Source: Gracilaria domingensis (lineage: Eukaryota > Rhodophyta > Florideophyceae > Gracilariales > Gracilariaceae). Taken from it: a DNA stretch of 53,532 bases. The notes below the pieces were generated by a model that was not told the origin of the DNA, made no database searches, and saw nothing but the letters and a program-made list of their open reading frames with translations. The position numbers were made by a program, and so were the translations under genes. This document shows positions 37,795-53,532 of the stretch, in pieces. The first letter of the stretch is position 1. Each line of letters opens with the position of its first letter. The stretch lies in contig VCMS01000187.1 of assembly GCA_022539475.1 (NCBI GenBank), positions 256,634 through 310,165 of the forward strand, given 5' to 3'.

Positions 37795-38654
37795 TGTGGT
37801 GCAAACCCGGTGACGGGAAAACAACAGCCGCGTCGCGGAAGAGCACCGACAGGGGTGTTCAAACCCTGCTCCCTACAGGGGTAGGCGCAATGACAGAACC
37901 CTCCGATAGGGCCAACACGAGCTGGGTGTAAATCCGGGTGGCCCCGACCTGGGCGTGCAGTCAGAGGTGAAGGGGGTAGAATCGGGGTAGCTATCCGGAT
38001 GGTTCCGGCGAGCCACAGCGAGTGAAGGTATCCAGACCAACGGTATGGGACGACGAGAGATTAGCAAGCCAGCCGCACTGCGGAGCGCTGACTCGAGATA
38101 ACGGGAATAAGTCCCGAGACTACTGGACCAAACCTGTATGACAAGGCAGAGTATCGAAGAGCCGTAAGACGGAAGTAAAAACAATAGAGTAGATAGTAAA
38201 GGTGCCGTGACGACGGATTAGTACTCCTCAAAGATGGAGGTTGGTTGATCAGCCCGGAATTGCGGCGGTATTCCCCAGGATGGGGCTTGTGACCGTGCGC
38301 AAGCGGCAAGAAGATCAGAGCCAAAGGCCTGGCTAAGGTTTACTTCCCGTACAGTAGCGGCAAGTGCCGCCACTTATGTACGGCACTTGAAAATATCAAT
38401 TGAGATATCTAACTACCCGGCAATGCCGGCCAATACACTACAGGTGTGAAACCATGGCAGGCTTGCCACGGCGCTCCCGCTATCGGGCCAACTTAGCACA
38501 CGTGTGCAGAAATACTACGCTTCCTAGGCATACCCCAAAATAGGGCCACTACCACAGTAGCCTCTCATAACCTGAGGTGTCGAAGCCGGTAATGGATCAA
38601 TAAACTATGAAAAACACCTCGGTGCATCCCCACACAAGGGCGTTTTGCTCTACA
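37795..38654 (-). repeat. Gypsy-A2 3' LTR (860 bp)
   Basis: On the minus strand TGTAGAGC...CACCACA; homologous to 10811-11663. On the plus strand it ends GCTCTACA at 38654 beside the polypurine tract complement (38655-38667). Confidence 0.93.
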
Positions 38655-38707
38655 TCTACCCCTTCTCAGGCTGAGACACCGACTCCGTCGGCTCGACACG
38701 CCTCTCG

Positions 38708-40511
38708 ATGGAGGTATATAAGGAAGTCTCCCAAGACGGGTCTGCCGAGAACTGTTCGGAGCCACCAACACCTCCGGTGTCAGTAGCGAACCTCGCCATC
38801 ACGAGCCCTCCCGCGATGTCCAACGCACCGAACGGCCCGCCGTCCTCGACGGCACGTATGCAAGTGTCCAACCCGCCGTTCCGGTCTGTTCCCCTTCCGC
38901 AGTCAGCGGCTGCCTCTCAACCGGGCTCTTCCGGACAGGATCACGCTCCAGCTCAGGCTGGTCCCGCGCCCGTATGGGATTGTTTCAACGCCGTGATGCC
39001 AGCTACGCTGGGTGGGTGGCCTACCGCAGGCGCGTTACGCATCCGGGATCCGCACCGGCACAGTTTTCTTTTCGCCCAGGCTCCCTGGCTTGACGCCGAG
39101 GCCGTTCGGGATACCGAGCTCGTCGACTCGTACGCTGTCGACGGTCAACTCTCTGGTGGGCTTCCTGCTGACGTTACCCGTTCATGGGACTGGATGCCCG
39201 CGTTGCGGTTATACCGAGTTGCCTGTTTGTAGGTCGAAACGAGACGAGACAGATCGCTCGCAATGAGATGGCCCGGATTGGGTACGCGCGACACTTCCGG
39301 GCTCCAAATGAACATCCGGTGACGGCACAGTACCAGTACGACGTGGCACGTTACCGAACTTTCGGCGAGGTCGGCTACGGCGACCATCTAGCCAACGCGT
39401 TGGACGAAATTGACCGATATTCGGACACCGTTCAGCCGCAGCAGGAGTTGATCCTGTGGGCGCGGCCCATTCTTCGCGCCGAGTTCCGGTTCTTCGCCGT
39501 CCTGGACGGTCTCAATTTCATGAAGGCCTCCGGTTCGAGAGGAAATGGCGTTCCCGCTTCGGGGTACTCGTGCCGTACCAGTGCACGGAGGTGGAGCACA
39601 TCGCGCGTCACTCCCATACTGGGCGATACCTGCCACTGCCGTCATTCTGGCCTGCGGTCGAAGTCCCACGAGGGTGTCACGTAGAGCTACCGCCCTGTCT
39701 AACTTACATAGGCTCGTATTTCATGAACGATCCCCCTCGCGGCCTGTGGGGCATCCTGGAAACGGTATGGAGCGTCCGCGTTGCGGCTTTCCTCCTCATC
39801 GAGGCATATGATTCCTACCGAGTTTGGTTCACCCCGGAGCTCATCCGGCAAGCGATCCTAGCGTTGGATCTCTCCGAAGTGCTCGGCTCGGTCCGCAATG
39901 CGCGCAAAGCGACCGCGTTGGTGGACGTCATTGACCAGGTTGAGTGGAATGAGGTGCCTGCTAGTCAGGTTTCCGACGGGGTTCGTTGGCAGTCGGACGG
40001 TTCTCCCGGACGGAACGTCAATGCCGGCGACTTCGTATACTTTAACCCATGGATTTGGGAGATAATTGGTCCCGCTGGGGCGGCTGGTCGCCTCCGAGAG
40101 GAGCGGCATATCCCAGATGGGCACCCGCGTGGGTTCATATACGTCGATGACGACGGTGATGACCCTACTGAGGGAGGGAGCCCCATGGATGAAGGGAGCC
40201 CAGTGGGCGTGGAGGTTGTACCGGAGCCCGGAGCTAAGGGCGACGACGACGAAGTCGTGGTTGTTGTCTCACCCGCTGTAGCGGCTCCCGATCCGACCGG
40301 CCCGTGGGCTCAGGACGTAGCATCCGCCGGGGGCGGCAGTTCCTCTCTCACTCCGCGAGCGCCGGTCATTCGCGACTTCCTCCGAGGCGTGGGAGTGGCC
40401 GTTCCCGATACGGTGACCGACGAGGCGGAGTTGCAAGCGATAGCGGCACAGCGCTTCTCCGGGGCTCCCGGTAATGGGGGCACCCCAGGTGCTGGGCCGT
40501 CCGGCGCGTAA
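38708..40511 (+). pseudogene. Gypsy-A2 opposite-strand accessory ORF, two frameshifts
   Basis: Homologue of 10757-8949 along its full length, including the Pro/Ser-rich start (MEVYKEVSQDGSAENC), the GYARHFRAPNE domain, the acidic DDDEVVVVV run and the PGAGPSGA end. Single-base losses near 39196 and 39495 shift the frame; the Gypsy-A1 nonsense codon is Trp here. The lesions differ between the copies, so the parent ORF was open in both lineages. Starts 54 bases from the LTR, so its promoter is probably in the LTR read backwards. No known domain recognised. Confidence 0.8.
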
Positions 40512-40821
40512 TTCCCCGGCTCGCGATCCCTGACGGGCCACGGTAGTCCGCGATAGACCCCGATGATGAAGGGCGACTCAATAGTTAGAGGTAAACTTCT
40601 CCAGCCTTGCTGGCTTGGCTCACTCTTTTCCTCTTGTTCTCCCCTTTCTCAGTGTGCAATACCTCGTTTCAGGCTGTTGCGAATGGCCCACAAGAGGAGG
40701 GGGGTAACTTTTCCGCACAAGCGGCTGTAGCGATAAAACTTCTTAGTCTTCCTTCCAGTTTCCTGGCTTCTTCTCCTTCTTCTTAGGCTTTGTTCTCCTT
40801 CATCTTCTTCTCCACTGTAAG
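40512..40821. other. Gypsy-A2 non-coding stretch
   Basis: Shared with 8641-8948. CTTCTTCTCC-rich on the plus strand. No gene seen. Confidence 0.5.
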
Positions 40822-41045
40822 TGGCCTCCGCATTTTGAGGCGTGTGTTCCCAGCTTGAAGCTGTCCGCATTGAGCGGCTTGTTCCGCCTAAGGAGGCTTA
40901 TTAATCTCAACTTAACTTAGTTGCATCCGCTTGAAGCAGAATATCCTGGCCTAATGCAATATTATCCGCATGAGGCGGCATATTCCGTCTGAGACAGCTG
41001 TGCTCAATTGAGTTGTGGGTGGTCAACCCACTTGGGCCTTGTCCA
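40822..41045 (-). repeat. Array of degenerate stem-loops downstream of pol (Gypsy-A2)
   Basis: About ten units of 17-22 bases, each with short inverted arms around a TNA-type loop: TCCGCATTGAGCGG (40864-40877), TCCGCATGAGGCGG (40965-40978), TTCCGTCTGAGACAG (40983-40997), CTCAATTGAG (41003-41012), and TGGTCAACCCACTTGGG. Same position as 8461-8640. Confidence 0.65.
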
Positions 41046-41190
41046 GCGTAGCCGGTATCGGTGTCCGTGTGCGACGGTGGTACTGCAAGACCTTCGAGCG
41101 AGGCAAGTGCTCGATAGGCTCGTGCGTATCCGCTGAAGAGGCATAGCCGTACCAACGGACTCGATACAGTAGTTCCCCGTCAGGGGGTGT
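41023..41190 (-). pseudogene. Gypsy-A2 chromodomain, split from Pol by one base
   Basis: DGELLYRVRWYGYASSADTHEPIEHL...VLQYHRR, a full chromodomain match with the canonical WYGY. One extra C in a C-run near 41190 (CCCCC against CCCC in Gypsy-A1) puts it out of frame with the 1119-codon Pol ORF. This is the only lesion seen in the Pol end. Confidence 0.8.
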
Positions 41191-44100
41191 AGCCGTGACA
41201 TACTAGACGGTCGATAACATTTTCCTCATCGAGGACCTTCCGCTCAGGATGCGGCCTGGTCGAGGAATCCTCTTTCGAGGCGTCATCGCTCCTGTTCCCG
41301 TCGTGGGCATCGCCAAATGTAGGTGGATTCCGTCCTGACGGCAACATATCCTGCACACCAGGCAAAGGCGACGTTGACCATGGTGTTTTCCTGACTGTCA
41401 GGCTTCCAGTTTCCTGGTTCTTCTTCCCATGCTGTTGGGCTGTAAACGGACTTCGTTCTTCCCGAATGGCGAGCTCCCGGCGTTCCGGCATAATCTCCCG
41501 TTGCGACGGTGAACGGTCCGCAACGCGGTGTGCCAGCGAGTGGTGTTCTGGCACATGCCGTGGCAACGGTTCGCCGCGCACTGCGGTTTGCGACACCTGC
41601 GCCTTTGCATGGCTGTCAAGAGCCGATTCAAACTCGGAATTTTCTGAACCGGTTTTAGGCGGCGCCAGGTCTGTGGCTGGCACGTGCCCGGCTTGTGCAC
41701 TGTAATCCTCGGTTGGAGGCGGATCTCCCACGGGGCTCGACACTTGGCGCGCCGTGCGCTCGTCGGCGGTGCTTGAGTGCTGCTCACTTGCTATGGCTTG
41801 ACTGCTTGCCACACTGGTGGTTAATTCCATATTTTCGAGGGCTTCGGCACTTGGTGCTGCACCAAAATCTCCCGAAGTCGGGTCTGCCGTAACACCACGG
41901 TCTTTCTTCACTAACTTCTCTCCTTCCGGTCTTCCGGGTTTGCGAATCACCGTAGTAGTGCCTTCCAACTCAGGCTTTCGTGGTAACGGCGCGTCCTTCT
42001 CTTCCGGTCTTCCGGCTTCGATCGTCAACGGATCGGCGTCCTTCTCCGAAGGCCTCAGCAAACCTGTGCGACTCTTCCGGCTTTCCGGCAGCGAATCCCT
42101 TACCACATCGGTTCTGTGCTCCCGTTCTCGGGCCTGCGAACGTAGCTCCTCCTCTTGAGGCTTGCGCGGTACCTGCGCGTCGTCCTTTTCATTCCGGGTT
42201 TCCGGCTGTGAGTCGCGCGACGTCGCGCGCTCGTGCGAAACAGAAGCCTGCAAGGGCGATTCCGTCGACGACGGCGACAATGAAATCGAAAGACTTACCT
42301 CCTCCCCATCCTCAGCTGGAGAGTCGGGGGCGGTGGTGAGTATCCCTTCAGGGGCCAGTATCCGCGTGTGGACGTGTGCGGCAGGCGAGACTGACTGGTA
42401 AGATTCCGGCTTGTCTGGCAAATCCGCAAGTCCGCGATTAGAATGCGGCAATAATGACAACGAAGTGCGCTCTCCCGTTGTTGCAGCTTGTTCCACAGTA
42501 GGCGTAGTGCTGTCCGGCGTTGCCGGTTGCTTTTCCTGAGAAACAGGCTTAGGCGCAGGCGTTACGCGATCCCGCGAAAACCGCTCGTGCTCCCCCTCGA
42601 TATCGAGGACAACCGTTGTATCGGTAACAGAAATAACCATGTAGGGGCCGTCCGCGATAGGAGAGAGCTTGTGCCTCTTCTCCTTTTCCGGGTTATAATA
42701 CTCCTTCCGTAGGAAGGCGTGGTCACCTTCCCTGATCCGAGGGGCATTCTGTCGCACTCGTGCGTCGAAATTTCGCTTGTAGGCGGCTTGTGCCTTATCA
42801 ATGTTCTGCCTAACCTTAGGAATAATGTTCTTTAGCCAGTCCTTGCAGGCGTCCCTTTGTAGACGGGGCGAGGTGAACCTATCCAAAGTTGGCTGTGGCT
42901 CAATAGCCACCGAAGGTGGAACGCGTGATAGCACAAGCTCGAACGGCGAGATCTGAGTAGTGCGATGAACCTGCGTATTGTAGGCATATGTCACCGCATC
43001 GGTGTATTGATCCCATTCCGACGCATGGTCGGCAACGAACGTCCGCAATGCATTGAGCATTGTGTGGTTAAAACGTTCAACCTGCCCATTACTCTGGGGG
43101 TGGTATGTTGTCGTAAACCAGTTTTGGATCCGCAAGATGCGGCAGACGTCCTGAAAGAACTTAGCCGTAAAGTGCGGTCCATTGTCCGATAACAAATCAA
43201 TCGGCGGTCCGTAGACAAAAACCCAGTGTGTGACGAAAGCTTGGGCGACCGCACTGGCGGTAACCTTCTTCAAAGGCACAGTCCGTACCAGCTTAGAAAG
43301 GCGGTCGGTGATCACCAGTAGAAACCAGTTTCCCTGACGGGTGCGAATAAACTCACCGAGCAAGTCAATAGCCACGAACTGCAGTGGAGCCCTGGCAGGG
43401 AATAATACCAACTTCTTGGAATACTTCCGCAATTTGACGCGGTTCTTCGCACAGTCAGGACATCGACGAACAGTGGCATACGCATCGAAAACCATTGCTG
43501 GCCAGTAGAAATCCTTTCTCAAGGTGTAGTACAACTTCCTACAACCAAGGTGGGCTGCCAACTTCGCATAATGCGACAGATGCAGTACTCGTGACTGACG
43601 AGTGTGCGGAACCACAATCTGTGGATTGTTTTCGACAGTTCGGATTAGAAATCCTTGGTCGTTCTCGACGAAAGGCAACTGAGCTCCACCGTTCAGACGG
43701 CTGCGGATCTCCGTGCAAAAACGGTCAGTATGCTGCTCCCTGATGAGCTCTTCCGGCGTAATTGGTACGAAAGAGCCCGGTTCGGGTTGCGTGTCTGACA
43801 CGGCTAACACAGCGTCGTAGATGTCCCACCCTTCCGTTTCTTCATCGGCATCGCTCGAGCCGTCTTCCGAGAGGAAGCACGGTATTTCCAGTTCATGAAC
43901 TGGCTCGGCTTCAGCCGCTGTTTCCAAGCGGGACAGTGCATCAGCCTGAGTGTTCAGGAGTCCTTTCTTGTAGCGGATTTCAAAGTCGAATTCCGACAGG
44001 CGAAGTCTCCACCGCATCAAGCGGCCAGATGGCTCTGCAATAGAGAGTAGCCAGCGCAAGGCCGAATGATCGGTATGAACGATAAAATGAGTTCCCATCA

Positions 44101-44594
44101 GATAGGGTCGCAATGTCTGCAGTGCCCAGACAACTGCCAAGCACTCCTTCTCGGATACCGAGTAATTCCTCTCGTGAACGTTGAGGCTTCGTGACCAATA
44201 TCCAATTGGCACTCGTTCGCCATCTTCGGTGGTCTGAAACAGAGCACAGCCAACTTGGTAATCGCTAGCATCCATGTCGATGGCATACGGCAAACCAGCC
44301 CTAGGTAGGGATAAAACCGGTGGCGATGTCACCGCGTTGATCAGAGACGAAAAAGCCGCCGCCTTGCGGTCGTCGAATGCTTCCAGTTGTACTGGCTGTC
44401 CCTTGCGAAGAAGCTCGTTCAGAGGTGATGCAATATCCGCAAAGTTCCGAATGAAGCGGCGATAAACGTTGCACAAGCCGAGAAAAGATCGGAGTTCAGT
44501 CTGCGTCCGTGGATGCCTAGCCTCTTTGAGGGATTTCACCCGAACTTTGTCGATAGATAGCCGTCCAGGACGGATGACGTGGCCCAGATACCTG
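41180..44594 (-). pseudogene. pol: Gypsy-A2 Pol: RT end, RNase H, integrase and long tail, one open frame
   Basis: 1119 codons are open from 44539; similarity extends to 44594, so the start is a truncation, not a true start codon. It contains RT thumb (HPRTQTELRSFLGLCNVYRRF), RNase H with MDASD and HTDHSALRW, the HHCC integrase domain, and the rve core with all three acids (VAIDLLGE, LSDNGPHF, SNGQVERF). Then comes the SH3-like end and a ~480-residue charged tail rich in Arg-Lys-Pro-Glu motifs leading to the chromodomain. It ends with a premature TGA at 41180-41182 created by the frameshift. It is the best-preserved Gypsy-A integrase in the window. Confidence 0.92.
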
Positions 44595-44626
44595 CGTCTG
44601 TCTCTTGCAGATGCTAGTTTTTGGCG

Positions 44627-44727
44627 AGGGTCGTCCAGAAATTGGCAAGGGTCGTCCAGTAAATTTTTTGAAAAAATATCGAGATCAATTATTTCAAAAT
44701 CTGCAGATAATTGCTTGGGTCGTCCAG
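44627..44727 (+). repeat. Three direct copies of GGGTCGTCCAG
   Basis: At ~44628-44638, ~44649-44659 and ~44717-44727. The first two also share the preceding TTGGC(G/A)A. They lie within 135 bases of the junction with Gypsy-A2, as subterminal repeats do in CACTA-type elements. I found no inverted copy at the right side of the window. Confidence 0.7.
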
Positions 44728-45091
44728 AATCGCTGTGCAGTAAATACTGGTGGGTTTTCCACTCGTGCTAGTTCTTTAGTCGAGGGCTACCTGAACTGTA
44801 TTTCGCGAAGTCTAGGTTCAGTTTCCATTAAGGTGCACATTACACGATACCTTCTGCGGAATGATACCCTGCAACGCATGGAATACTAGTGCTAGTACAG
44901 ATGATGTCCATTATGAAATCATACCGTTTTATTCGTATCTATTCTTCTATCGACCGCTTTTGCTAACCACTATTTCGCTATATTACATGTACCATTTCCC
45001 CATGATGGATCGGATGTAGGCGCAATCTGCAGCAGATGCCGCAGACTGCACGTCCACCATCGGCTGTATCGGTAGAACAAATACGCACTCC

Positions 45092-45124
45092 GAGAGGATG
45101 AGGCGCGAAGCGCCTCATCCTCTC
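45092..45124. repeat. Perfect 15-bp hairpin with GAA loop
   Basis: Arms 45092-45106 and 45110-45124 are exact inverted copies. The tip reads GCGAAGC, a sequence known to form an unusually stable DNA mini-hairpin. Confidence 0.9.
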
Positions 45125-45125
45125 C

Positions 45126-45177
45126 GTTCCTCATGTAGGGAACCATGCCCAGATGCATGGTTCCCTACTTGAGGAAC
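45126..45177. repeat. 23-bp hairpin with one mismatch, next to the first
   Basis: Arms 45126-45148 and 45155-45177 pair with a single T-T mismatch (45134/45169) around a 6-base loop. Only one base separates it from the previous hairpin. Confidence 0.9.
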
Positions 45178-45486
45178 CTGCACCTGCAACTCGTGAGCTA
45201 CGTCCGCATCAAAAGTCATTTACCTGTATACGCAAGCAGAAAGTATCCATAAGTTAGTCAATGATCCGTTGGATACATTTGAAATGCGATGGAACGTACC
45301 ATTGATAAGAGCAAAACAGAAACGTTGCGCTAGAAAAGTCGAGGGACCTAGTAACTCGCAAAATGAAAAAGAAGAAGGAAAGGGATCGGTTAGATTGCCA
45401 GCCCACCATCATCGTAAAGCGCGAAAGGTGTCGAAGCGAGAACTCACAAGCAAGGACACCAAGAATGCCCATGCAGCAAACATACC
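45178..45486. other. Non-coding stretch before the minisatellite
   Basis: No gene supported. A plus-strand open frame begins at 45269 but runs into the repeat array and has repeat-derived composition. Confidence 0.4.
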
Positions 45487-45925
45487 GCAAGATGCGATAA
45501 ACGAGAGAGCAGCCTATGTCGCAACCAAGTACCAGAATCGACTATCCCGCAAGCCAGTCAACCAAGATCGCCAATACAAGAAGATCAACGTAAGGCGCGA
45601 GAAGAGAGGCGAGTCTATGAGGCAACCAAGTCAAACCATATCGCCAATGCACCAAAAGTAACGCAAGACGCGATAAGAGAGAGACCATCCTATGGCGCAA
45701 CCTAGTCAACCAAGATTGCCAATGATGAACCTATCGCCCGAGCCAGTCAACCAATATCAACCAATATCGCCAATACACCAAAAGCAGCGCAAGACGCGAG
45801 AAGAGAGAAGAGTCTATGGCGGAACCAAGATCGCCAACAAACCAAAAGTAGCGCAAGATGCGAGAAGCTAGAGACGCCTATGGCGCAACAAAGTGAACCA
45901 AGATCGGCAATACCGCGTGATAGGT
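45487..45925 (+). repeat. Degenerate minisatellite, ~65-125-bp units
   Basis: At least five tandem units start GCAAGA(T/C)GCGA(T/G)AA (45487, 45591 variant, ~45663, ~45790, ~45851) and contain a CTATGGCGCAACCAAG core and a CAAGATCGCCAATAC core. Unit length varies by internal loss. Confidence 0.75.
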
Positions 45926-46645
45926 TACAGGAGCAGTCAGAGATCGATCTTGAGAGACGAAATGAAACTGGTTGCGTACTTACAGTCGTTGTGGACGTCG
46001 GAAGAAATACAAAGGACGCACGTCAAATAATGGTTACCTTCAATCACGTCAATGTTAGTAGCAAGACGTAGAACAAGATGGAACATATCGTAAGCAGAAC
46101 GTAGTTGAACAAATGGAACGAGTTGGAGGCTGAAAACGGGAACCCGGTAACCCAAAGCTTATTTTCTGCCGTTTACATGTCGAATAGCGCGAAAAAACGT
46201 GGTGAGGATGGGTTAGTTTAGAGCAAAGATACATAGAAGAATATGGAAGAGAACCTACGAAAAGACTGCACGGAATACATCCGTGAGATACGGATGACTC
46301 CGTCCTACTTTTTTCGGCCCTCTACTTTAAGGAACCTCCATAAAGTACAGGGAGGAAAAAAGAAGGACGGAGGGGAGTATAACGCGAGGATGTGGATGGC
46401 ACGGATCACGACGGTAAGGGAAGGTCGGACGTCGGAGGCGCGGCGGCGGCGGCGGAGGGAAGAGATTTATTTTTCTGTGCGAGATTGGACAGGTGTACAG
46501 CGTACAACGTTGCGAAACCACAGGTTTATAACCAGTGGTAGATAATACGAGAAGTACACCCTTGTGTTGAGGTCGACGTGTACCTACGTTCCTTTTTGAA
46601 CGAAAGCACGTGATTTAAACTCAAAATATATTCTCCGTTCTCAGC
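45926..46645. other. Upstream region of the transposase gene
   Basis: Contains a GGCGGC repeat near 46440 and an A/T-rich AAAATATA about 20 bases before 46646. No coding sequence supported. The promoter is presumably here. Confidence 0.4.
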
Positions 46646-49600
46646 ATGACGTCGATCTTGACTGTCGCTCGACCTCCTTCTCCCTTCGGACGCCCTTCCC
46701 TTGCAGTCTTTGTCGTCGTTTCTCGTTCAGTTCTTCTTCCCATGGTCTACTACTGTACACATAAGAAGCGTGGGTGCCCCTTCGTTACTCGCCGAGGAGT
46801 CTTATCCCTTCAACAGCATGTCAACCATTGCCCGTTTCGTCTGAAAGCAGCGCTGGAAGACGACAATAGCCGGCCCATTCGGAGAAGCAAGCGTCTCAAG
46901 CTTTCCGCACCCGCGCCCGCATCTTCCGAAACGGTCACTGCCCCTTGTCGCCTTCCCGAGCCTCCAGTGTCCGAGGACATCGTCGACCCCACTCCGTGCG
47001 CCCCTCCCATTCCGGACACTTCGCATTGTGTTTCTTCTTCCCCGGCTCCCGCGTCATTAGAGCGAGAACACGGAAGCAGTTCCCGCCCAGTGCCTTCTGA
47101 GGAGGCCCTCGGTGATTTGCATATGGATTATCTCACGGTTTGTCTGGCTTCAGTAGCTTCCAACCTTGGTCATCGTGAGGCAGACGAGCGAATTGGGCTA
47201 CTTCGGGACCCGCGATTCTCGCAAAAGCGATTCAACGAGACCATAACAAGTTCCAAGCGCTGTACAGAACTGAAGAAGGCCATTTTCGAACGATACGCCT
47301 CAAAGGACGGTTTCAATCGCAGAACTGTCTCGCCAGAAGGATGTAAGTTCAGCGCCACCCTCTACACGAGAGACCCCGTTCAGACACTTGTGAAACAGCT
47401 CCAGTTGGCTAACAACGAAAACACATTCTTCCACCCTATACCTCAGACCCACTCCACGAAAATATCTCACCCCATGTCCGGCTCTCTCGCAAGAGACGCC
47501 ACCTCAAAACTTAAGGAAATGGTCATGGGCTCTTTGGATAGTAGAATAGTGTGGTACTCCCAAGAAATAAGTTACAGTGAATCTTTCGTAGGTCTTCTGC
47601 AGGTATACACCGATAAGTCTTCAACAACTCTAAAGCAAACATCGGTTACCGCCTATCCTCTTCACCTCATATTTCTCAACTTCTCCGACGAGCTTCGCCG
47701 TAAGTGTATCCGTGATGACCTCACAGTAGTGGCATACTTCCCTACCACACTGATCGAGGTTTCCGCATCTGAAGCAGACGCAATGCCATTTGTTTCTAGC
47801 AAGTCTCTACGCGAGTCCAGGATGCAAATCCTTCAAGAATCTCTTCGTCAAGTCCTGGAGCCCATTCTAAATCTCACGCAGAAAGGTTTTCAGTTCATCG
47901 GCGAAGACAAACTAAGTCGAGTGTGCCATCCTCTGCTTGCAAGTTATTGTGCGGATATTCCTGAGGCTAAGGACATTCTGTCTATTCTTCATGGCACCAA
48001 AACGGAAAGCCCGTGTCATAGATGCAAAGCCCCTCGCTCATCTTTATGCAGTCCTATTCCCACCTCATTCAACGGACGTTCTCAAAAGCACACGAAAAGC
48101 ATCCGAAAGACATACACAGCTATCTTGCAACATGCACAAAAAGACGAGGCGGAAAGACGTCCACGTCGTGCGAGGGAGAGGAGATCTCAAGCGGATACTC
48201 TGATGCGTTCAAATTCCATATCTCTCATTCCTTCGTTCCTCGAAACTTCCGTAAGCCTTGGAATGATCCCGGGATTGTCTCCATACAGTCTGTTCTCATT
48301 CGAACCATTACACAACTTGCATCTCGGCATCTCAAAGTTGATAAAAACGGCCACAATCGAGAGACTGCAGTCAGAAACCCTGTGCACCACAATAAGAACA
48401 TCTGCATCGCGTTCATTTCGAACGATACGCACCCAACTCCTCAACCATGCAAACGCAATTCTAGCTGCCATAGAACGCGATTCTCCTGCCAAAGGTTTAC
48501 ATATCGATTTCTCCACGCAGGAGAAAGGCAAATCTTTGAATGGTATCTTCACGAAAGACGGTCTCCGTGGAATGCTGGAGGCCAAAAACTACAAAGCACT
48601 TGACATGGTCTTTCCCTTCATAGGAGCATTCTTTGACATATGCTGTGGAGAACAGGACGTTGCCCCAATCACAACCGTTTTCTCTCAGTACTCGGACTTG
48701 CTCTCGACCTTATTCAGATACAATCGTGACCCGTATTGGACTGAAAGCTCTCTCCTGTGTCTTAGTTCGGAGATTGAAGCCTTCAAGCGTTCCGCAACAA
48801 AGACTCTGGCGGATTTTCATCCCTCCAGACTGGGAACTCTGAAGTTTCATCTTCTCGATCATCTCGTGGACGATATTCGCCGTCTGGGAAGTATCAAGTA
48901 TTACGACGCAGGCATATACGAACATGCACACCTGCTATTTAAAAGACACTACAAAAAGACGTCCAGAAGAACAGCAACGGCTGTGGAGGAGACTATTCGC
49001 TCCATTGAGCACGGACATGTTAGAAAGCAATGGAATGGCAATACTCCTTACCAGCGTAATCCAGGTTTACCAGGAACTTCCACACAGCTTCCTCGGTTTG
49101 CAATGAGAGGGCGTTCTTTCACTTTACGAGCTCTTCAACATTGTGTTTCAAGTATGTCCAGTTCAAAAACATGGACTGCTGTTAGAGAAATGTTCTCAAG
49201 TACGGACACAAGGTCGATTCTTGATCAAATTGGTGAACAGGCCCTTCCTCCTTTCCTCAGTCTCGTGAAAGAAACACTGGATGAGCACTCTATTACATAC
49301 TTCCCAGAAAAGACAAGGATAACTCTGGTGAATTCGGCCGTCGTGAAAGGCGGTTTCGTTCCGACTCTTGAACACTTCGATTCGTCTTCTAAGGCACTTA
49401 AGCTGGGACGACCCAAATACCCCATCATCCAACGTGTCTTCGCTTCTCCAGCATTTGGTCCCAGTAGAAAGCCAAAGTTTTCCACTGTATTGGTAAGCGG
49501 AGAAGATTCAGAGACTTGGGTTGCCCAGGTAGTCGCTCTGATTCGAATATCTCTCCTTGATTCTGCACTTACCGCACCAGAGGTGGCATTCGTCCGGTAT

Positions 49601-49921
49601 TTCGAGGTTTTACCCCCCGCAACAAACATCGACCACATACTGAAATGCATATCTTTACGGTGGGCTACAAACGATGAAAAGAACCACACTCTTCCGTTCC
49701 CTCGTCATTCCAAAGCGGAGACTATCGTAGAGCTAACTCCTTGGTACGGGATGGTTCCGGCTTCTGCACTACAGGGAACTGTCCATGTTGTTCGATCAAA
49801 CTACCCTGCTCCACCTTTTTGTCCTCCACTTCAATGGTTCCAACACCGATTCTACATCAATCGATTCTATCATGATTCAGATGAAGGACCAACTGAGCAC
49901 GTTGATCTTGTACAGCCTTAA
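46646..49921 (+). CDS. Zinc-finger transposase-like protein (Plavaka/CACTA-like)
   Basis: 1091 residues, uninterrupted. Met33 (46742, context CCCATGG) is the more likely start: it opens MVYYCTHKKRGCPF, a zinc finger with Cys37, Cys44, His58 and His61/Cys62; the 32 residues before it are hydrophobic and low in complexity. A Ser/Pro-rich linker follows (~95-145). Transposase-like landmarks: Cys457-x2-Cys460 (SPCHRCK), FEPLHNLHLGISK (552-564, like the D-x-x-H-N-x-x-L-G of CACTA-type proteins), and TLKFHLLDHL...YYDAGIYEHAHLLFKRHYKKTSRR (731-771), where Glu759 could be the catalytic Glu. These resemble Plavaka/CMC cut-and-paste transposases, but I cannot fix the full DDE triad by eye. It would act in the nucleus on element ends. 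Tail-to-tail with the coiled-coil gene. Confidence 0.7.
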   Translation: MTSILTVARPPSPFGRPSLAVFVVVSRSVLLPMVYYCTHKKRGCPFVTRRGVLSLQQHVNHCPFRLKAALEDDNSRPIRRSKRLKLSAPAPASSETVTAPCRLPEPPVSEDIVDPTPCAPPIPDTSHCVSSSPAPASLEREHGSSSRPVPSEEALGDLHMDYLTVCLASVASNLGHREADERIGLLRDPRFSQKRFNETITSSKRCTELKKAIFERYASKDGFNRRTVSPEGCKFSATLYTRDPVQTLVKQLQLANNENTFFHPIPQTHSTKISHPMSGSLARDATSKLKEMVMGSLDSRIVWYSQEISYSESFVGLLQVYTDKSSTTLKQTSVTAYPLHLIFLNFSDELRRKCIRDDLTVVAYFPTTLIEVSASEADAMPFVSSKSLRESRMQILQESLRQVLEPILNLTQKGFQFIGEDKLSRVCHPLLASYCADIPEAKDILSILHGTKTESPCHRCKAPRSSLCSPIPTSFNGRSQKHTKSIRKTYTAILQHAQKDEAERRPRRARERRSQADTLMRSNSISLIPSFLETSVSLGMIPGLSPYSLFSFEPLHNLHLGISKLIKTATIERLQSETLCTTIRTSASRSFRTIRTQLLNHANAILAAIERDSPAKGLHIDFSTQEKGKSLNGIFTKDGLRGMLEAKNYKALDMVFPFIGAFFDICCGEQDVAPITTVFSQYSDLLSTLFRYNRDPYWTESSLLCLSSEIEAFKRSATKTLADFHPSRLGTLKFHLLDHLVDDIRRLGSIKYYDAGIYEHAHLLFKRHYKKTSRRTATAVEETIRSIEHGHVRKQWNGNTPYQRNPGLPGTSTQLPRFAMRGRSFTLRALQHCVSSMSSSKTWTAVREMFSSTDTRSILDQIGEQALPPFLSLVKETLDEHSITYFPEKTRITLVNSAVVKGGFVPTLEHFDSSSKALKLGRPKYPIIQRVFASPAFGPSRKPKFSTVLVSGEDSETWVAQVVALIRISLLDSALTAPEVAFVRYFEVLPPATNIDHILKCISLRWATNDEKNHTLPFPRHSKAETIVELTPWYGMVPASALQGTVHVVRSNYPAPPFCPPLQWFQHRFYINRFYHDSDEGPTEHVDLVQP
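49918..49921. other. Shared TTAA: overlapping stop codons of convergent genes
   Basis: TAA of the plus-strand gene is 49919-49921; TAA of the minus-strand gene is the complement of 49918-49920. The two CDSs overlap by four bases with no intergenic space, inside CCTTAAACATTAAGG. Confidence 0.92.
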
Positions 49922-52314
49922 ACATTAAGGGCTCCATCTTCTACATGTTCACCTTGTGGTGCCTTTTCTTGTGATCCTGTGTTAATTCCGAAATCGTTCA
50001 TGTCCATTTCCTTGAACTCCATATCCCCTTCCTCGCATTCACCAACGAAGCAATCGCTAATAGACCCCAATCTTCGGCTCACACTGTCAATAAGAAATTG
50101 TTCTTTCACAGTGAGGTAAAGTCTTCCGTTCGACGGCATTCGATATCCAAATGTAGCCTCTCTCATGTCATTACCAAGAACCTTAGTCCAATCTTCCGTT
50201 GTCGTTCCAAAATTATGAAACTCGCTGGAATTGGTCCTCAAGACATGTTGCCTAACATCCCCCAGAACATTCTTTAAACACAGAGGTAGCAGTTCAGCAA
50301 ACTTCTTTGTAAACAGTTTCTGTCTCTGGCCACCCCTTGACACATCCGTACTTAGAAGGCTCACAACCGTCAACACCCAAGCGTCCAAACGTGCGAGCAA
50401 CAGTATTGTGCCATCTAAAAAGGTGCCCGTATCCTTGTCTTCCACATCATACCCAATAAACTCCTTCAGCACTTGTACCCCGACACGGTTTCGGAAGAAC
50501 AAGTCTTGATCTTCCGTCGGCATATCCTCGACATTGTCCGCATTGGAGTACTTTAGACGAACAAATGGGGCTTTTCTCCACCATGAAGTGTTCGGTACAC
50601 CATTTTCGTCAAGACGCAGTATGTTCTCCTGCGCTTCCTTCAACTGCATTGTGAGTTCGTCAGCATTCTCTTCTACCAGCTTTGTTCTTCTCCAAATCAG
50701 ATCGTACCCCAGGAGCAGAAATAGTATATCCCTCGTATTTCTCTTACGAACGCCCACGACGTCACTCATGGTCTGCCGCATTCTCTGCCTAAGGCACATA
50801 TCTGCACAAAGTTCCAGTATACACCTGTCGGTAAGAGATGCTTTTCTAATACCTTCCCAGCTCAACTCCTTCAACTCGCTTTCAACCATTTTCTTCAGCA
50901 AAGCATGTGGCCCCCCCTCTACCGACGGTGTGAACATGCCAAAACTGCCCAAGAGCTCCACGGGGTTTTTAGGAACCATGTATGAACCACCTTCCTCCGG
51001 CTCAATAAGCCCTTCCCCACTCTCAGTTGCGTCTTCCACCTTCTCGGCACGGTTACCCCAATTTCGGGTGAGCGACTCACCTTCGAGCCATAGCTCACTT
51101 GTTTCTCTCCTTGCCCACGTCAGCATGTTGTGATACACTGCTCGAGCAACCCCTCGAAACTCGTCGCACACCTCAATTTTATGCTTCTTTCGACCTGTCT
51201 GCCCAGGTTCACCAGCACGTGTACTCCTATCTCCCTCCTGTTTCAGTGCCCCTCTTAGCCCTTCAATGACTAGATCCTTCTCTTCAAGCCTCTTTTTCAA
51301 AGCCGTACTCTGCTCTTGGGCGACCTTCACTAGAATTCCCCGAACCATCAAGTCCTCTTGTAGCGTCTTAACCTTTTCTTTCAAGCAATTCAGTTCATTT
51401 AAAAGATCAGGTCTGTTCATAGAGCTTGAATTCACACCAGTTTGGATATCTTCCGTTATTTCCCTAGCTTCTTCGGCGACAGGCCCCGGTAATGCCGCAG
51501 GATTCGGTGTTATTTCGTTATCGGAACTATCCTCATGTGCCATAGCCTTAGCCACGAGAGGCTGCAGGCGTTCTGTGTCCACCCTTGGCACGGCTCCGAG
51601 CTCCAACTCCCGTGTATGTCCTCCTCCATGGCATGGTATATCAGATGAATTGGGCCTCGTACGAGCTGCAACGGCCCCCGTTCTGGAAAGAGGGGAAGGT
51701 CGAAAAGTAACTCGTCTATCAGTTGTCTCTCGATTTCTTATTGTGTTTCTCCCTTGTCCGGACCCATTGCGAGGCATGATACGATTCATAGCGGCCCCAG
51801 TTCTAGAAGAGAGGGATGGACGTGACGATCTTAATATACTAGGACTCTCACGACTTCTCGTCATTGTCCCTCGTTGTCCAGATCCACTGGGCGGCGTAAC
51901 CCGCGCCCCAGTAGCTCCGGTCTTCGATATCGGCCGGGGACATGAAGGTTTTGGTGTCATACGAACCTCTTCGGTTCCAGTTGTCATGCCCTCCTGTCCT
52001 GACCCGCTGGGCCGAGTTACCTCATCTTCTTGAGGAGCAGAGACAGATGCACGATTTGCATTATCGGTAGTTGACGGCACGACATCGTTCGCTGATCCAC
52101 GAATTCTTGACGCAATCCCGGAAGACGCTCCGCTGCGAGATGGGCGAGAGGGTCCTGTAGAAGGACGCCCACTGACTCTCTCCTTCGTCGAGGACGACTT
52201 CCGTTTAGGAAGTGCGGTGCTTGTAGCCTGATTCGTATCATCCGATGCTCTTCTCTTCTTCTGTCCACTCTTGTTCCGCTGCGTACTATTTCGCTTTCTC
52301 GGCGTTATACCCAT
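49918..52314 (-). CDS. Large basic / coiled-coil protein of unknown function
   Basis: 798 residues from ATG 52314, uninterrupted. Residues 1-55 are strongly basic (PRKRN, KKRRAS, PKRKSSS), likely nuclear localisation. Residues 99-218 are three exact-length 40-residue repeats sharing P-x-x-GSGQ and a (S/R)-(R/K)-TGA end (start V99, V139, I179). Residues ~303-362 are a likely coiled coil (LNELNCLKEKVKTL ... KKRLEEKDLVIEGL). The second half is a folded, acidic domain with WWRKAPFVRLKYSNAD and FFRNRVGVQVLKEFIGYD; I do not recognise it. Convergent and stop-overlapping with the transposase, downstream of the SET gene on the same strand. Its place suggests a transposon accessory or DNA/chromatin-binding partner; that is inference. 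Confidence 0.75.
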   Translation of the reverse strand: MGITPRKRNSTQRNKSGQKKRRASDDTNQATSTALPKRKSSSTKERVSGRPSTGPSRPSRSGASSGIASRIRGSANDVVPSTTDNANRASVSAPQEDEVTRPSGSGQEGMTTGTEEVRMTPKPSCPRPISKTGATGARVTPPSGSGQRGTMTRSRESPSILRSSRPSLSSRTGAAMNRIMPRNGSGQGRNTIRNRETTDRRVTFRPSPLSRTGAVAARTRPNSSDIPCHGGGHTRELELGAVPRVDTERLQPLVAKAMAHEDSSDNEITPNPAALPGPVAEEAREITEDIQTGVNSSSMNRPDLLNELNCLKEKVKTLQEDLMVRGILVKVAQEQSTALKKRLEEKDLVIEGLRGALKQEGDRSTRAGEPGQTGRKKHKIEVCDEFRGVARAVYHNMLTWARRETSELWLEGESLTRNWGNRAEKVEDATESGEGLIEPEEGGSYMVPKNPVELLGSFGMFTPSVEGGPHALLKKMVESELKELSWEGIRKASLTDRCILELCADMCLRQRMRQTMSDVVGVRKRNTRDILFLLLGYDLIWRRTKLVEENADELTMQLKEAQENILRLDENGVPNTSWWRKAPFVRLKYSNADNVEDMPTEDQDLFFRNRVGVQVLKEFIGYDVEDKDTGTFLDGTILLLARLDAWVLTVVSLLSTDVSRGGQRQKLFTKKFAELLPLCLKNVLGDVRQHVLRTNSSEFHNFGTTTEDWTKVLGNDMREATFGYRMPSNGRLYLTVKEQFLIDSVSRRLGSISDCFVGECEEGDMEFKEMDMNDFGINTGSQEKAPQGEHVEDGALNV

Positions 52315-52351
52315 GCTGTGGAGATAAACAGGGTAATGAAACGAAATTGTT

Positions 52352-52382
52352 GGGGAGGGGGGAGGGGGTGGGGGGGGGGGGG
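52352..52382 (+). repeat. G-rich tract (G-quadruplex-prone) between the SET and coiled-coil genes
   Basis: G4-A-G6-A-G5-T-G12 or longer. On the minus (coding) strand it is a long C-rich pyrimidine tract 40-70 bases before ATG 52314, followed by TTTATCTCCACAG, so a 3' splice site of a 5'-UTR intron is possible. Confidence 0.7.
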
Positions 52383-52565
52383 TGCATGGTTCAGATATTC
52401 CGGGAGACTCCGCAGTTCCTGCTTTTTAGGAATTTGAGGTGCCCAATGGGTCGCAAATATCGCCGTTACAGATGAAGAGCTCCAGTGTACATGTACAACA
52501 ACGCGTATTGCAGGCAGCTGCAACACTCACAAGCATATTTACTTTCTATTCGCTACTGAACTCAT

Positions 52566-53397
52566 CTATTGCTCCAATGTCAGAGCCCAGTCCCAGGCGT
52601 ACTGCTCTCCGTAGTCGAAATACAACTCTTCGCCCCTCTCAATATCTCTTACTGCTCTACAACGAAGTAGAGCATAGTTAGAAAGGTCTGACTTGAACTG
52701 TATCACGGACTTCGCTTCCACCACCTGCACATTGGCACTTCGAGTCCTGTTTGACCGGGGCTCCGATAAATCGGGATCCCCGGCATGATATCCGGCGTCG
52801 TTAATGTAGCCCCCGATACAAAAAGGCGCCGGGACAATGTAGACTTCGCTCTCCTTTCTATCCTGAGCCTGTCCTGGTCTGTTCCTCAGGTGCAGAAACT
52901 CCGTACCAGTCACAGTGACCATCATAGAAAACAACTTGTACCGCACTGGAGTTGCTCCGAGACAGCCACTTCCATACGTTAAGTGTCTTTCCTTCCGGTT
53001 CGTCAGATCCGTGTATACCAAAGTTCCATAGAAATGACAGATAGTTTCCCCAGCCAATATCTTATGTTCCGTGAACACCCCATACCAGCACGGGGATGTC
53101 GGATCTTAGAAGATGCTATATGTAAGCGATATCGATTGGCTTCAACAGTCAACAGCATATGCATATCCATAAGATTCAGAGCTCCTCGGTACTTCTCCTC
53201 CCAAAGATCTACAGTACGCTCTCCACACTTGTCGGCAAAGTCCCAGTCCTTCCAGTATCTTCCTAGGAACTGAGTAATATGTCCAGGCATCACTTGGTAC
53301 TGGGGGTAACCAAATGGAGCCTCCCATTCAAGCCGACCTCGGTCCCGATGTGGAACCCGTTCATAGGTCGTTGAAGCCGCATCCACCACTCCTGTTC
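52566..53397 (-). pseudogene. SET-domain protein methyltransferase, frameshifted
   Basis: Two overlapping frames, 53389-53003 and 53078-52566, join at a G-run near 53075-53085: loss of one base separates KIRHPRAGMG from VFTEHKILAGETICHFYG. Together they give the SET start (G-x-G-V-F-x-x-x-x-I-x-x-G-E-x-I-x-x-Y-x-G), the mid part with YINDAG (SET pseudo-knot N-D) and SANVQVVE, and the end GEELYFDYGEQYAW with the conserved Asp-Tyr-Gly. SET enzymes move methyl groups from S-adenosylmethionine to protein lysines, usually histones. About 170 residues precede the SET core (GYPQYQVMPGHITQFLGRYWKDWDF). A TGA at ~53396 closes the frame upstream; a further open frame at 53460-53340 may be more of it. 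It could be a true pseudogene or a one-base sequence error. Confidence 0.75.
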
Positions 53398-53532
53398 AAC
53401 CAGGATGTCATTCTTCCCCCCGAATAACTTCGGCCATAAGAGTCGTTAGATGGTGCTTCGCATGGCTGAAACATGGCCTATTCTTCTCGCACACCCAAGA
53501 ACGTTCTATGCTTGGTCAGAGGAATAGCACGC
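53398..53532 (-). other. Possible further 5' part of the SET gene
   Basis: On the minus strand a frame reading NDILVEQEWWMRLQRPMNG is open from ~53460 down to ~53340 and overlaps the SET frame. It is either the real N-terminal part after another frameshift or chance. The window ends here. Confidence 0.3.

What the first reader, a model, noticed from the sequence alone, without database searches (positions are those of the whole stretch)
44595..53532. Transposase + convergent coiled-coil protein + SET methyltransferase as one mobile module
Seen: a Gypsy-A2 copy stops dead at 44594 and the new unit holds a zinc-finger Plavaka/CACTA-like transposase, a tightly packed convergent partner and a SET-domain gene on the partner's strand. 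Known: DNA transposons can carry chromatin or DNA-modifying genes (for example TET/JBP dioxygenases linked to KDZ transposons in fungi). Inference: here a histone-lysine methyltransferase has been recruited, perhaps to modify chromatin at donor or target sites or to escape silencing. I know of no described element with this exact trio.
Basis: partly seen in the sequence, partly recalled or inferred. Interest (0 to 1): 0.88.

Follow-up and report, generated by a model that had tools for sequence, protein, structure and literature searches.

The report
Seaweed jumping gene carrying chromatin-writing enzyme
A very large, very abundant jumping gene in the genome of what is almost certainly a red seaweed carries, besides its transposase, a single protein that joins a bacterial-type DNA methylase to a histone-methylase-like SET domain, which suggests that the element writes its own chromatin marks.

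Summary
The window's right end is the left 8.9 kb of a DNA transposon cut off by the contig end. Left terminus: 44595. The longest copy read through (C20) is 22.8 kb; 9 of 11 copies examined show 2-bp target duplications; 554 left and 572 right ends were counted. Transposase: Plavaka (Pfam). The "SET gene" is the C-terminus of a 1045-aa protein fusing a bacterial-type N6/N4 DNA methylase to SET; an unnamed database protein aligns across the fusion region at 44-51% identity. Long copies also carry a ParB-like protein beside a palindrome cluster, HAD proteins and unknown genes. Short (~10.3 kb) copies exist; one sampled looks like an internal deletion. Host: very probably the alga Gracilaria domingensis. 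Giant CACTA-like and Plavaka-linked elements are known in algae and protists, as are algal transposon-borne ParB-DNA methylases; SET occurs in oomycete transposons. I found a methylase-SET fusion in a transposon nowhere in print, but the key Bostrychia paper could not be read. Function (self-marking, probably against silencing) is inference.

The parts
44595..53532 (+). Left 8.9 kb of a DNA transposon of the Plavaka group (up to 22.8 kb elsewhere), truncated by the contig end
   Evidence: Homologous to C137, C91, C591, C50, C20 and others, mostly at 95-99%; copies followed to both ends: C20:34726-57565 and C50:136919-155902
44595..44609 (+). Left terminal inverted repeat CGTCTGTCTCTTGCA; the right end of C50 reads TGCAGAACACAGACG (12 of 15 positions match inverted)
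   Evidence: 554 left and 572 right ends in the genome
44628..44727 (+). Three subterminal direct repeats GGGTCGTCCAG
   Evidence: Read in the sequence; same three in C137, C164, C91 and C50
46646..49921 (+). Plavaka transposase, 1091 aa; only one CxxC (residue 457) and one H(3-4)H (735) in the protein, then E759; Cys/His cluster near residue 37
   Evidence: PF18759, 68.6 bits; motif positions; 42 scored copies, all 99-100% identical
49918..52314 (-). 798-aa accessory protein of unknown function, convergent with the transposase, the two stop codons overlapping
   Evidence: no Pfam or PHROG family; 56 scored copies
52566..53078 (-). SET domain = C-terminal part of the methylase-SET fusion gene (frame broken at about 53080 in this copy)
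   Evidence: PF00856; full 1045-aa ORF in C171 (L037:5984-9121) with PF01555 55.9 bits and PF00856 32.3 bits
53003..53389 (-). Linker between methylase and SET, in another frame of the same gene; most of the methylase domain lies past the contig end in this copy
   Evidence: ORF compared with the 1045-aa ORF; indels

Best explanation
SHOWN: a high-copy DNA transposon of the Plavaka group, 22.8 kb in its longest copy read through, encodes its transposase, a convergent 798-aa protein, a 1045-aa protein fusing a permuted N6/N4 DNA methylase to a SET domain, a ParB-like protein next to a cluster of about 24-bp palindromes, and further genes; it inserts with 2-bp duplications and many copies are nearly identical. 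INFERRED mechanism: the transposase cuts at the CGTCTGT ends and reinserts the element. The methylase-SET protein acts on the element's own DNA and the nucleosomes over it, writing an adenine (or N4-cytosine) methyl mark and a histone-lysine methyl mark together; the ParB-like protein, perhaps bound at the palindromes, provides self-recognition. The likeliest use is to keep the element's chromatin permissive against host silencing. The identity (shown part) is about 0.93 sure; the figure below is for the whole statement with its mechanism.
For: Ends, duplications and copy number. Gene linkage. Both domains over curated cut-offs in one uninterrupted frame; frame intact end to end in C164 and C171, and 9 of the 150 listed SET matches lie in a 1055-aa open frame with no stop. 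Fusion region alignable at 44-51% identity in an unnamed protein, P0001. Methylase nearest among solved structures to DpnA and CcrM adenine methylases, E 2.5e-9 and 4e-7, with DPPF before the SAM motif, the permuted order. Constraint on the fusion gene: 30 nonsynonymous and 26 synonymous variants, p 0.0001 to 0.003 depending on the assumed transition bias. ParB-like: PHROG 3264, E 7e-4. Palindrome cluster in 4 of 4 copies examined. Precedents for self-marking or anti-silencing transposon proteins: PMC12477816 and PMC12730594 (passages).
Against: No activity was measured. Most copies of the fusion gene are broken: only 9 of 150 listed SET matches sit in the complete frame, and in C20 and C50, the two copies followed to both ends, methylase and SET lie in different frames. 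The SET domain is divergent: the usual NHxC motif (recalled) reads NDAG, and no PDB chain matches it better than E 0.28 as a single sequence or 0.013 with the two-sequence profile. Pfam finds the methylase in P0001 (35 bits) but no SET, since that protein stops half-way through the domain. Methylase motif I reads FAGTF (FVGTF in C171, FGGAF in P0001) rather than the FMGSG of DpnA, so activity may be altered or lost. Transposase and 798-aa genes show weaker constraint (about 0.6 and 0.9) and the ParB-like gene none (1.07); the counts rest on 4-10 distinct copies per gene. None of the 12 paired copies of 10.1-10.9 kb holds a listed methylase or SET match, so the protein seems not to be needed in cis. 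Both AlphaFold models failed.
Confidence: 0.48

Rival explanations
1. Self-restraint: the methylase-SET protein silences the element family (or its rivals) to limit copy number or damage, rather than protecting it from silencing.
For: The closest working analogue of a bacterial amino-methylase joined to chromatin, bdelloid N4CMT with its chromodomain, serves transposon silencing (PMC8885841, abstract and passages). Frequent short copies would be what escape from self-silencing produces.
Against: The family has 554 left ends, and all 42 listed transposases are 99-100% and most listed SET copies at least 94% identical to the query: recently and strongly active.
Confidence: 0.2
2. Passenger cargo: the extra genes were captured and persist by hitch-hiking, with no role in the element's life.
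For: HAD-type proteins look metabolic; the 798-aa and ParB-like genes show little constraint among the copies read; only 9 of 150 listed SET matches lie in the full intact frame; short copies are common.
Against: The fusion gene is constrained, its fusion region is alignable in an unrelated record, and DNA methylases recur in transposons of several algae (PMC12477816).
Confidence: 0.21
3. Replication or partition: ParB-like protein, palindromes and methylase form a virus- or plasmid-like maintenance module, with the SET an accessory.
For: ParB-like hit beside a cluster of GTGTTAGGGTANNTACCCTAACAC-type palindromes.
Against: No replication gene was seen in the proteins scanned; ParB similarity is weak (E 7e-4, no Pfam or NCBIfam match). 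Insertions with 2-bp duplications show a chromosomal life style.
Confidence: 0.08
4. The trio is an accidental juxtaposition of a Plavaka element with a separate host or mobile SET gene.
For: 29 of 42 listed transposases have no listed SET nearby, partly because hit lists are capped and contigs end there.
Against: Constant spacing and shared ends; common ends around the whole C20 copy with a matching dinucleotide.
Confidence: 0.02

Closest known systems
Giant EnSpm/CACTA transposons of red algae (Chondrus crispus; Bostrychia moritziana)
   Same: Red-algal, CMC-related; 16-20 kb with 4-5 ORFs in Chondrus (PMC6431247 passage); multiple accessory genes in red algae, citing the Bostrychia paper (PMC12477816 passage)
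   Different: Whether they carry a SET or a methylase-SET fusion could not be checked: the Bostrychia paper is not held and the Chondrus report was not looked up
ParB-DNA methylase accessory proteins of algal transposons (Sola1-1_Ec32 of Ectocarpus; similar ones said to occur in green and red algae)
   Same: 21.5-kb transposon, N4/N6 methylase on the strand opposite the transposase, ParB-like domain (PMC12477816 passage)
   Different: There ParB and methylase are one protein in a Sola element; here the methylase is fused to SET, and ParB-like is a separate gene in a Plavaka element
Plavaka families of fungi with TET/JBP dioxygenase
   Same: Plavaka transposase with an epigenetic accessory enzyme; 2- or 3-bp duplications (PMC12730594 passages)
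   Different: Termini TGT..ACA or CATCA..TGATG there, CGTCTGT..ACAGACG here; TET there, methylase-SET here
HarbingerS and MuDR transposons of Phytophthora with SET
   Same: SET histone methyltransferase carried by a DNA transposon (one sentence in PMC12730594)
   Different: Other superfamilies; no DNA methylase is mentioned in that sentence
Plavaka giant repeats of Amoebidium
   Same: Plavaka transposase beside clusters of intron-poor genes up to 50 kb, with relatives in red algae or dinoflagellates (PMC11244446, section 7)
   Different: Tyrosine recombinases are the genes named; no methylase-SET is mentioned in that section
Bdelloid N4CMT (bacterial amino-methylase plus chromodomain)
   Same: PF01555 permuted methylase fused to a eukaryotic chromatin domain (PMC8885841 abstract and passages)
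   Different: A host gene with a reader domain, not a mobile gene with a histone-writer domain
DIRS retrotransposons with Dam-like methylase; DNMT-bearing retrotransposons
   Same: Selfish element encoding a DNA methylase (PMC5890265 passages)
   Different: Retroelements; 'SET domain' does not occur in that paper's text

Membership tests
Plavaka superfamily of DNA transposons | Transposase with the Plavaka domain PF18759 | tested here: met
   68.6 bits against cut-off 26.3, residues 234-491
[quoted passage not shown]
   Exactly one CxxC (457) and one H(3-4)H (735) in the protein, then E759. That E759 is the catalytic E is by position only, and the catalytic D residues were not mapped
Plavaka superfamily of DNA transposons | 2- or 3-bp target site duplication | tested here: met
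   2 bp in 9 of 11 paired copies; C50 and C29 do not match
PlavakaA or PlavakaB sublineage | Termini TGT..ACA (A) or CATCA..TGATG (B) | tested here: not met
   Termini are CGTCTGT..ACAGACG; it is filed as Plavaka but under neither sublineage
Beta-class (permuted) N6/N4 DNA methylase | PF01555, with the catalytic DPPY-type motif before the SAM-binding motif | tested here: met
   PF01555 55.9 bits against 26.7; DPPF at 511, DMF at 713. Motif I is atypical (FAGTF). Base specificity not testable here
SET lysine methyltransferase | SET domain above Pfam cut-off | tested here: met
   30.2 bits (window) and 32.3 bits (C171) against 22.4
SET lysine methyltransferase | Canonical GxG, NHxC and catalytic tyrosine motifs (recalled) | tested here: inconclusive
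   GMG and FDYG (FNYG in C171) are present; NHxC reads NDAG. Activity not testable here
ParB/Spo0J family | ParB-N domain | tested here: inconclusive
   PHROG 3264 E 7e-4; no Pfam or NCBIfam match
TET/JBP or other 2-oxoglutarate dioxygenase (557-aa protein) | Dioxygenase fold or domain | tested here: inconclusive
   HTD and a later H and R seen by eye; no Pfam, NCBIfam or PHROG match, no PDB match below E 0.4, and the model failed
Self-synthesizing or viral element (Polinton, virophage) | DNA polymerase B, capsid or packaging genes | tested here: not met
   No such family among the 11 proteins or the 341-aa protein; smaller ORFs and stretches hidden by N were not scanned

The most novel reading that the evidence does not exclude
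The element encodes a dual epigenetic writer, a DNA-amino-methylase fused to a histone-lysine methylase, that with a ParB-like self-recognition protein and an on-board palindrome array stamps matched DNA and histone marks on the element's own copies: a transposon with its own portable, two-layer epigenetic identity.
Probability: 0.35. Interest if true: 0.85.

Novelty: new variant of a known kind. Interest (0 to 1): 0.63.

Why it matters
How eukaryotic transposons counter or use chromatin silencing is open, and the cases I met in the papers cited here involve one borrowed enzyme type at a time. Here both writing activities sit in one polypeptide on an element that, by a rough estimate (554 left ends times the mean size of 47 paired copies), makes up about a tenth of a seaweed genome. 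The DNA mark, the histone mark and copy-level variation (intact against deleted copies) can all be read by standard sequencing of one alga, so the self-marking idea is directly testable.

Tried and rejected
Led nowhere: structure prediction of the 557-aa protein and of the methylase-SET half (mean pLDDT 28.8 and 29.9), so no fold search was made; homologue search with an 819-aa piece of the methylase-SET protein (6966 candidates, no hit); PDB searches with the ParB-like and 557-aa proteins; viral-contig scans (for the fusion, one short 40%-identical methylase stretch out of 63 candidates; for ParB-like, none).

Rejected: (1) Fungal host: dropped after the 557-aa protein matched a Gracilaria domingensis record at 94% identity over 95%. 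(2) A 'core' 10-kb element into which the methylase block was inserted later: the sampled short copy keeps the 3' end of the 798-aa gene, which fits deletion from the long form; one copy only was sampled, and only 200 bases of it. (3) CG as part of the duplication: the duplications are two varying bases outside CG. (4) A telomere role for the TTAGGG-bearing palindromes: considered, not tested. (5) Ketopantoate-reductase identity of the protein near the right end (334 aa in C20, about 415 aa in most listed copies): by eye only, no family match.

Limits: genome hit lists are capped (150, 56, 42, 66, 120 and 128 scored of 494, 902, 1778, 822, 833 and 663 candidates), so every 'k of n' is of listed hits. 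In one search, 94 of the 100 listed left ends and 98 of the 100 listed right ends were entered; the 100 listed are themselves the first of 554 and 572. In one search copies covering less than 90% of a gene were dropped, identical rows were counted once, codons with two or three changes and new stops were left out of the ratio, and indels were ignored, so frame-broken copies are included.

Full report
OBSERVATION. The three genes are present at the stated coordinates. The transposase matches Plavaka, PF18759, at 68.6 bits (cut-off 26.3) and the last ORF matches SET, PF00856, at 30.2 bits (cut-off 22.4); the 798-aa protein matches nothing in Pfam. The Gypsy copy ends at 44594. The window is the right end of contig C187 of a 77.9-Mb, 680-contig assembly, and the contig ends with the window.

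THE WHOLE ELEMENT. Comparing the window with other copies, the left boundary is base 44595: CGTCTGTCTCTTGCAGATGCTAG follows unrelated flanks, apart from a one-base difference in one of two C53 copies; the ten further left ends fetched begin with CGTCTGTCTC too. Past the contig end the homology continues and stops together in C20 and C50 at ...TTGCAGAACACAGACG, or ACAAACG in C20. C20:34726-57565 is a 22,840-bp copy (with 356 N) and C50:136919-155902 an 18,984-bp one (with 1,026 N). The flanks of paired ends show identical dinucleotides in 9 of 11 copies: C2, two on C8, C9, C19, C20, C26, C27, C60; not in C50 and C29. With up to two mismatches the genome holds 554 left and 572 right ends, none for the reversed control. 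Of 47 paired ends, 12 are 10.1-10.9 kb and 6 are 22.2-23.0 kb.

LINKAGE. 43 of 56 listed copies of the 798-aa gene have a listed SET 233-267 bp upstream on the same strand; 8 of 42 listed transposases have a listed 798-aa neighbour, all 8 with coding ends 2 bp apart (stop codons not counted); 13 of 42 transposases have a listed SET 2638-2653 bp beyond their end. 92 of 128 listed methylase matches have a listed SET downstream on the same strand, 82 of them at 332-337 or 214-215 bp; 29 of 66 ParB-like matches have a listed methylase divergent within 8 kb. 22 of 32 listed SET copies on contigs C1-C71 have a perfect left end in the right orientation within 12 kb, 0 of 32 in the wrong one. Against the module: 29 of 42 listed transposases have no listed SET. 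Some lie at contig ends and the lists are capped, but short copies are real: in C158 the transposase lies 1.7 kb from the gene near the right end, against 13.9-14.6 kb in the six other copies measured. The 200 bp read there contain the 3' end of the 798-aa gene at 99% identity, as expected of an internal deletion.

THE METHYLASE-SET GENE. In C164 and C171 the frame containing SET is open for 1045 aa from its first ATG without an intron. The C171 protein passes both curated cut-offs: N6_N4_Mtase at residues 506-743 (55.9 bits) and SET at 873-1032 (32.3 bits). 9 of the 150 listed SET matches lie in a 1055-aa open frame without a stop; the rest are shorter or interrupted, and in C20 and C50 methylase and SET are in different frames. 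In the solved-structure search the methylase part is nearest to DpnA and CcrM adenine methylases, with DPPF (511) before the SAM-motif region (713), the permuted order. DPPF suggests adenine (recalled), but PMC8885841 notes that specificity cannot be read from the domain (passage). A 378-aa protein of unnamed origin, P0001, aligns across the methylase end, the linker and the first part of SET at 44% identity in the alignment and 51% in the local match; Pfam sees its methylase but not its half SET. Variants among the few distinct copies read: 30 nonsynonymous, 26 synonymous, p 0.0001 to 0.003. In the window copy the frame is broken within the SAM-binding part of SET; the last 40 bases of the contig carry four more indels against all nine copies that reach them, so I do not read the break as biology.

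OTHER GENES of long copies (coordinates in L032 and L040): a cluster of palindromes with arms GTGTTAGGGTA/TACCCTAACAC, 3 to 5 of the forward arm in each of 4 copies; a 674-aa protein with a ParB-like match (PHROG 3264, E 7e-4); a 557-aa protein with HTD..H..R by eye but no database support; two HAD-type proteins; a protein resembling ketopantoate reductase by eye only (334 aa in C20); and a 341-aa protein near the right end.

HOST. The 557-aa protein matches 'hypothetical protein FGB62_128g110 [Gracilaria domingensis]' at 94%. Searched back, the best place in this genome is on contig C128, 99% and 97% in two pieces, agreeing with the number in the locus tag; 78 Mb is the size given for G. domingensis in PMC10388701 (passage).

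MECHANISM. Shown: insertion with 2-bp duplications, high copy number, some intact frames, constraint on the fusion gene. Inferred: methylation of the element's DNA and nearby histones. Direction unknown. I lean to anti-silencing because the family is so successful and because TET-bearing relatives are interpreted that way (PMC12730594 abstract); self-silencing is a main rival, by analogy with bdelloid N4CMT (PMC8885841), and so is plain cargo.

NOVELTY. Known: giant EnSpm in red algae (PMC6431247; PMC12477816); ParB-methylase accessory proteins in algal transposons (PMC12477816); SET in Phytophthora HarbingerS and MuDR, TET in Plavaka (PMC12730594); Plavaka giant repeats (PMC11244446); Dam or DNMT in retrotransposons (PMC5890265). 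I found no description of a DNA methylase-SET fusion in a transposon in ten text searches, of which the listings and the passages or sections cited were read. Two cited sources, the Bostrychia paper and an older review, are not held, so 'new' is provisional.

Noticed in passing
G000:C187:25976-38167 (outside the window, same contig): Matches to the gene near the right end (25976), ParB-like (31523), methylase (36547) and SET (37688) in consistent order: probably a second copy of the element on this contig.
   Followed up: no
window:4839-11173 and 38291-44594: Two Gypsy copies in inverted orientation, 74-92% alike in the aligned pieces; the right one is interrupted by the element at 44594.
   Followed up: partly
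window:41180-44539 (-): The Gypsy polyprotein ORF continues for some hundreds of residues past the integrase region as a low-complexity tail; seen by eye, what it is was not examined.
   Followed up: no
L032:1112-1925, L029:4446-5030: Palindromes with CCCGCGGGC flanks and a TTAGGG core, between the methylase-SET and ParB-like genes; a candidate binding array or origin.
   Followed up: partly
contigs C228, C62, C58, C105, C180, C151: These contigs begin within about 1.3 kb of a SET or methylase copy: the repeat seems to break the assembly.
   Followed up: no
C164:29241: A copy with an internal deletion joins the middle of the transposase to the region behind SET; its methylase-SET frame stays intact.
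   Followed up: partly
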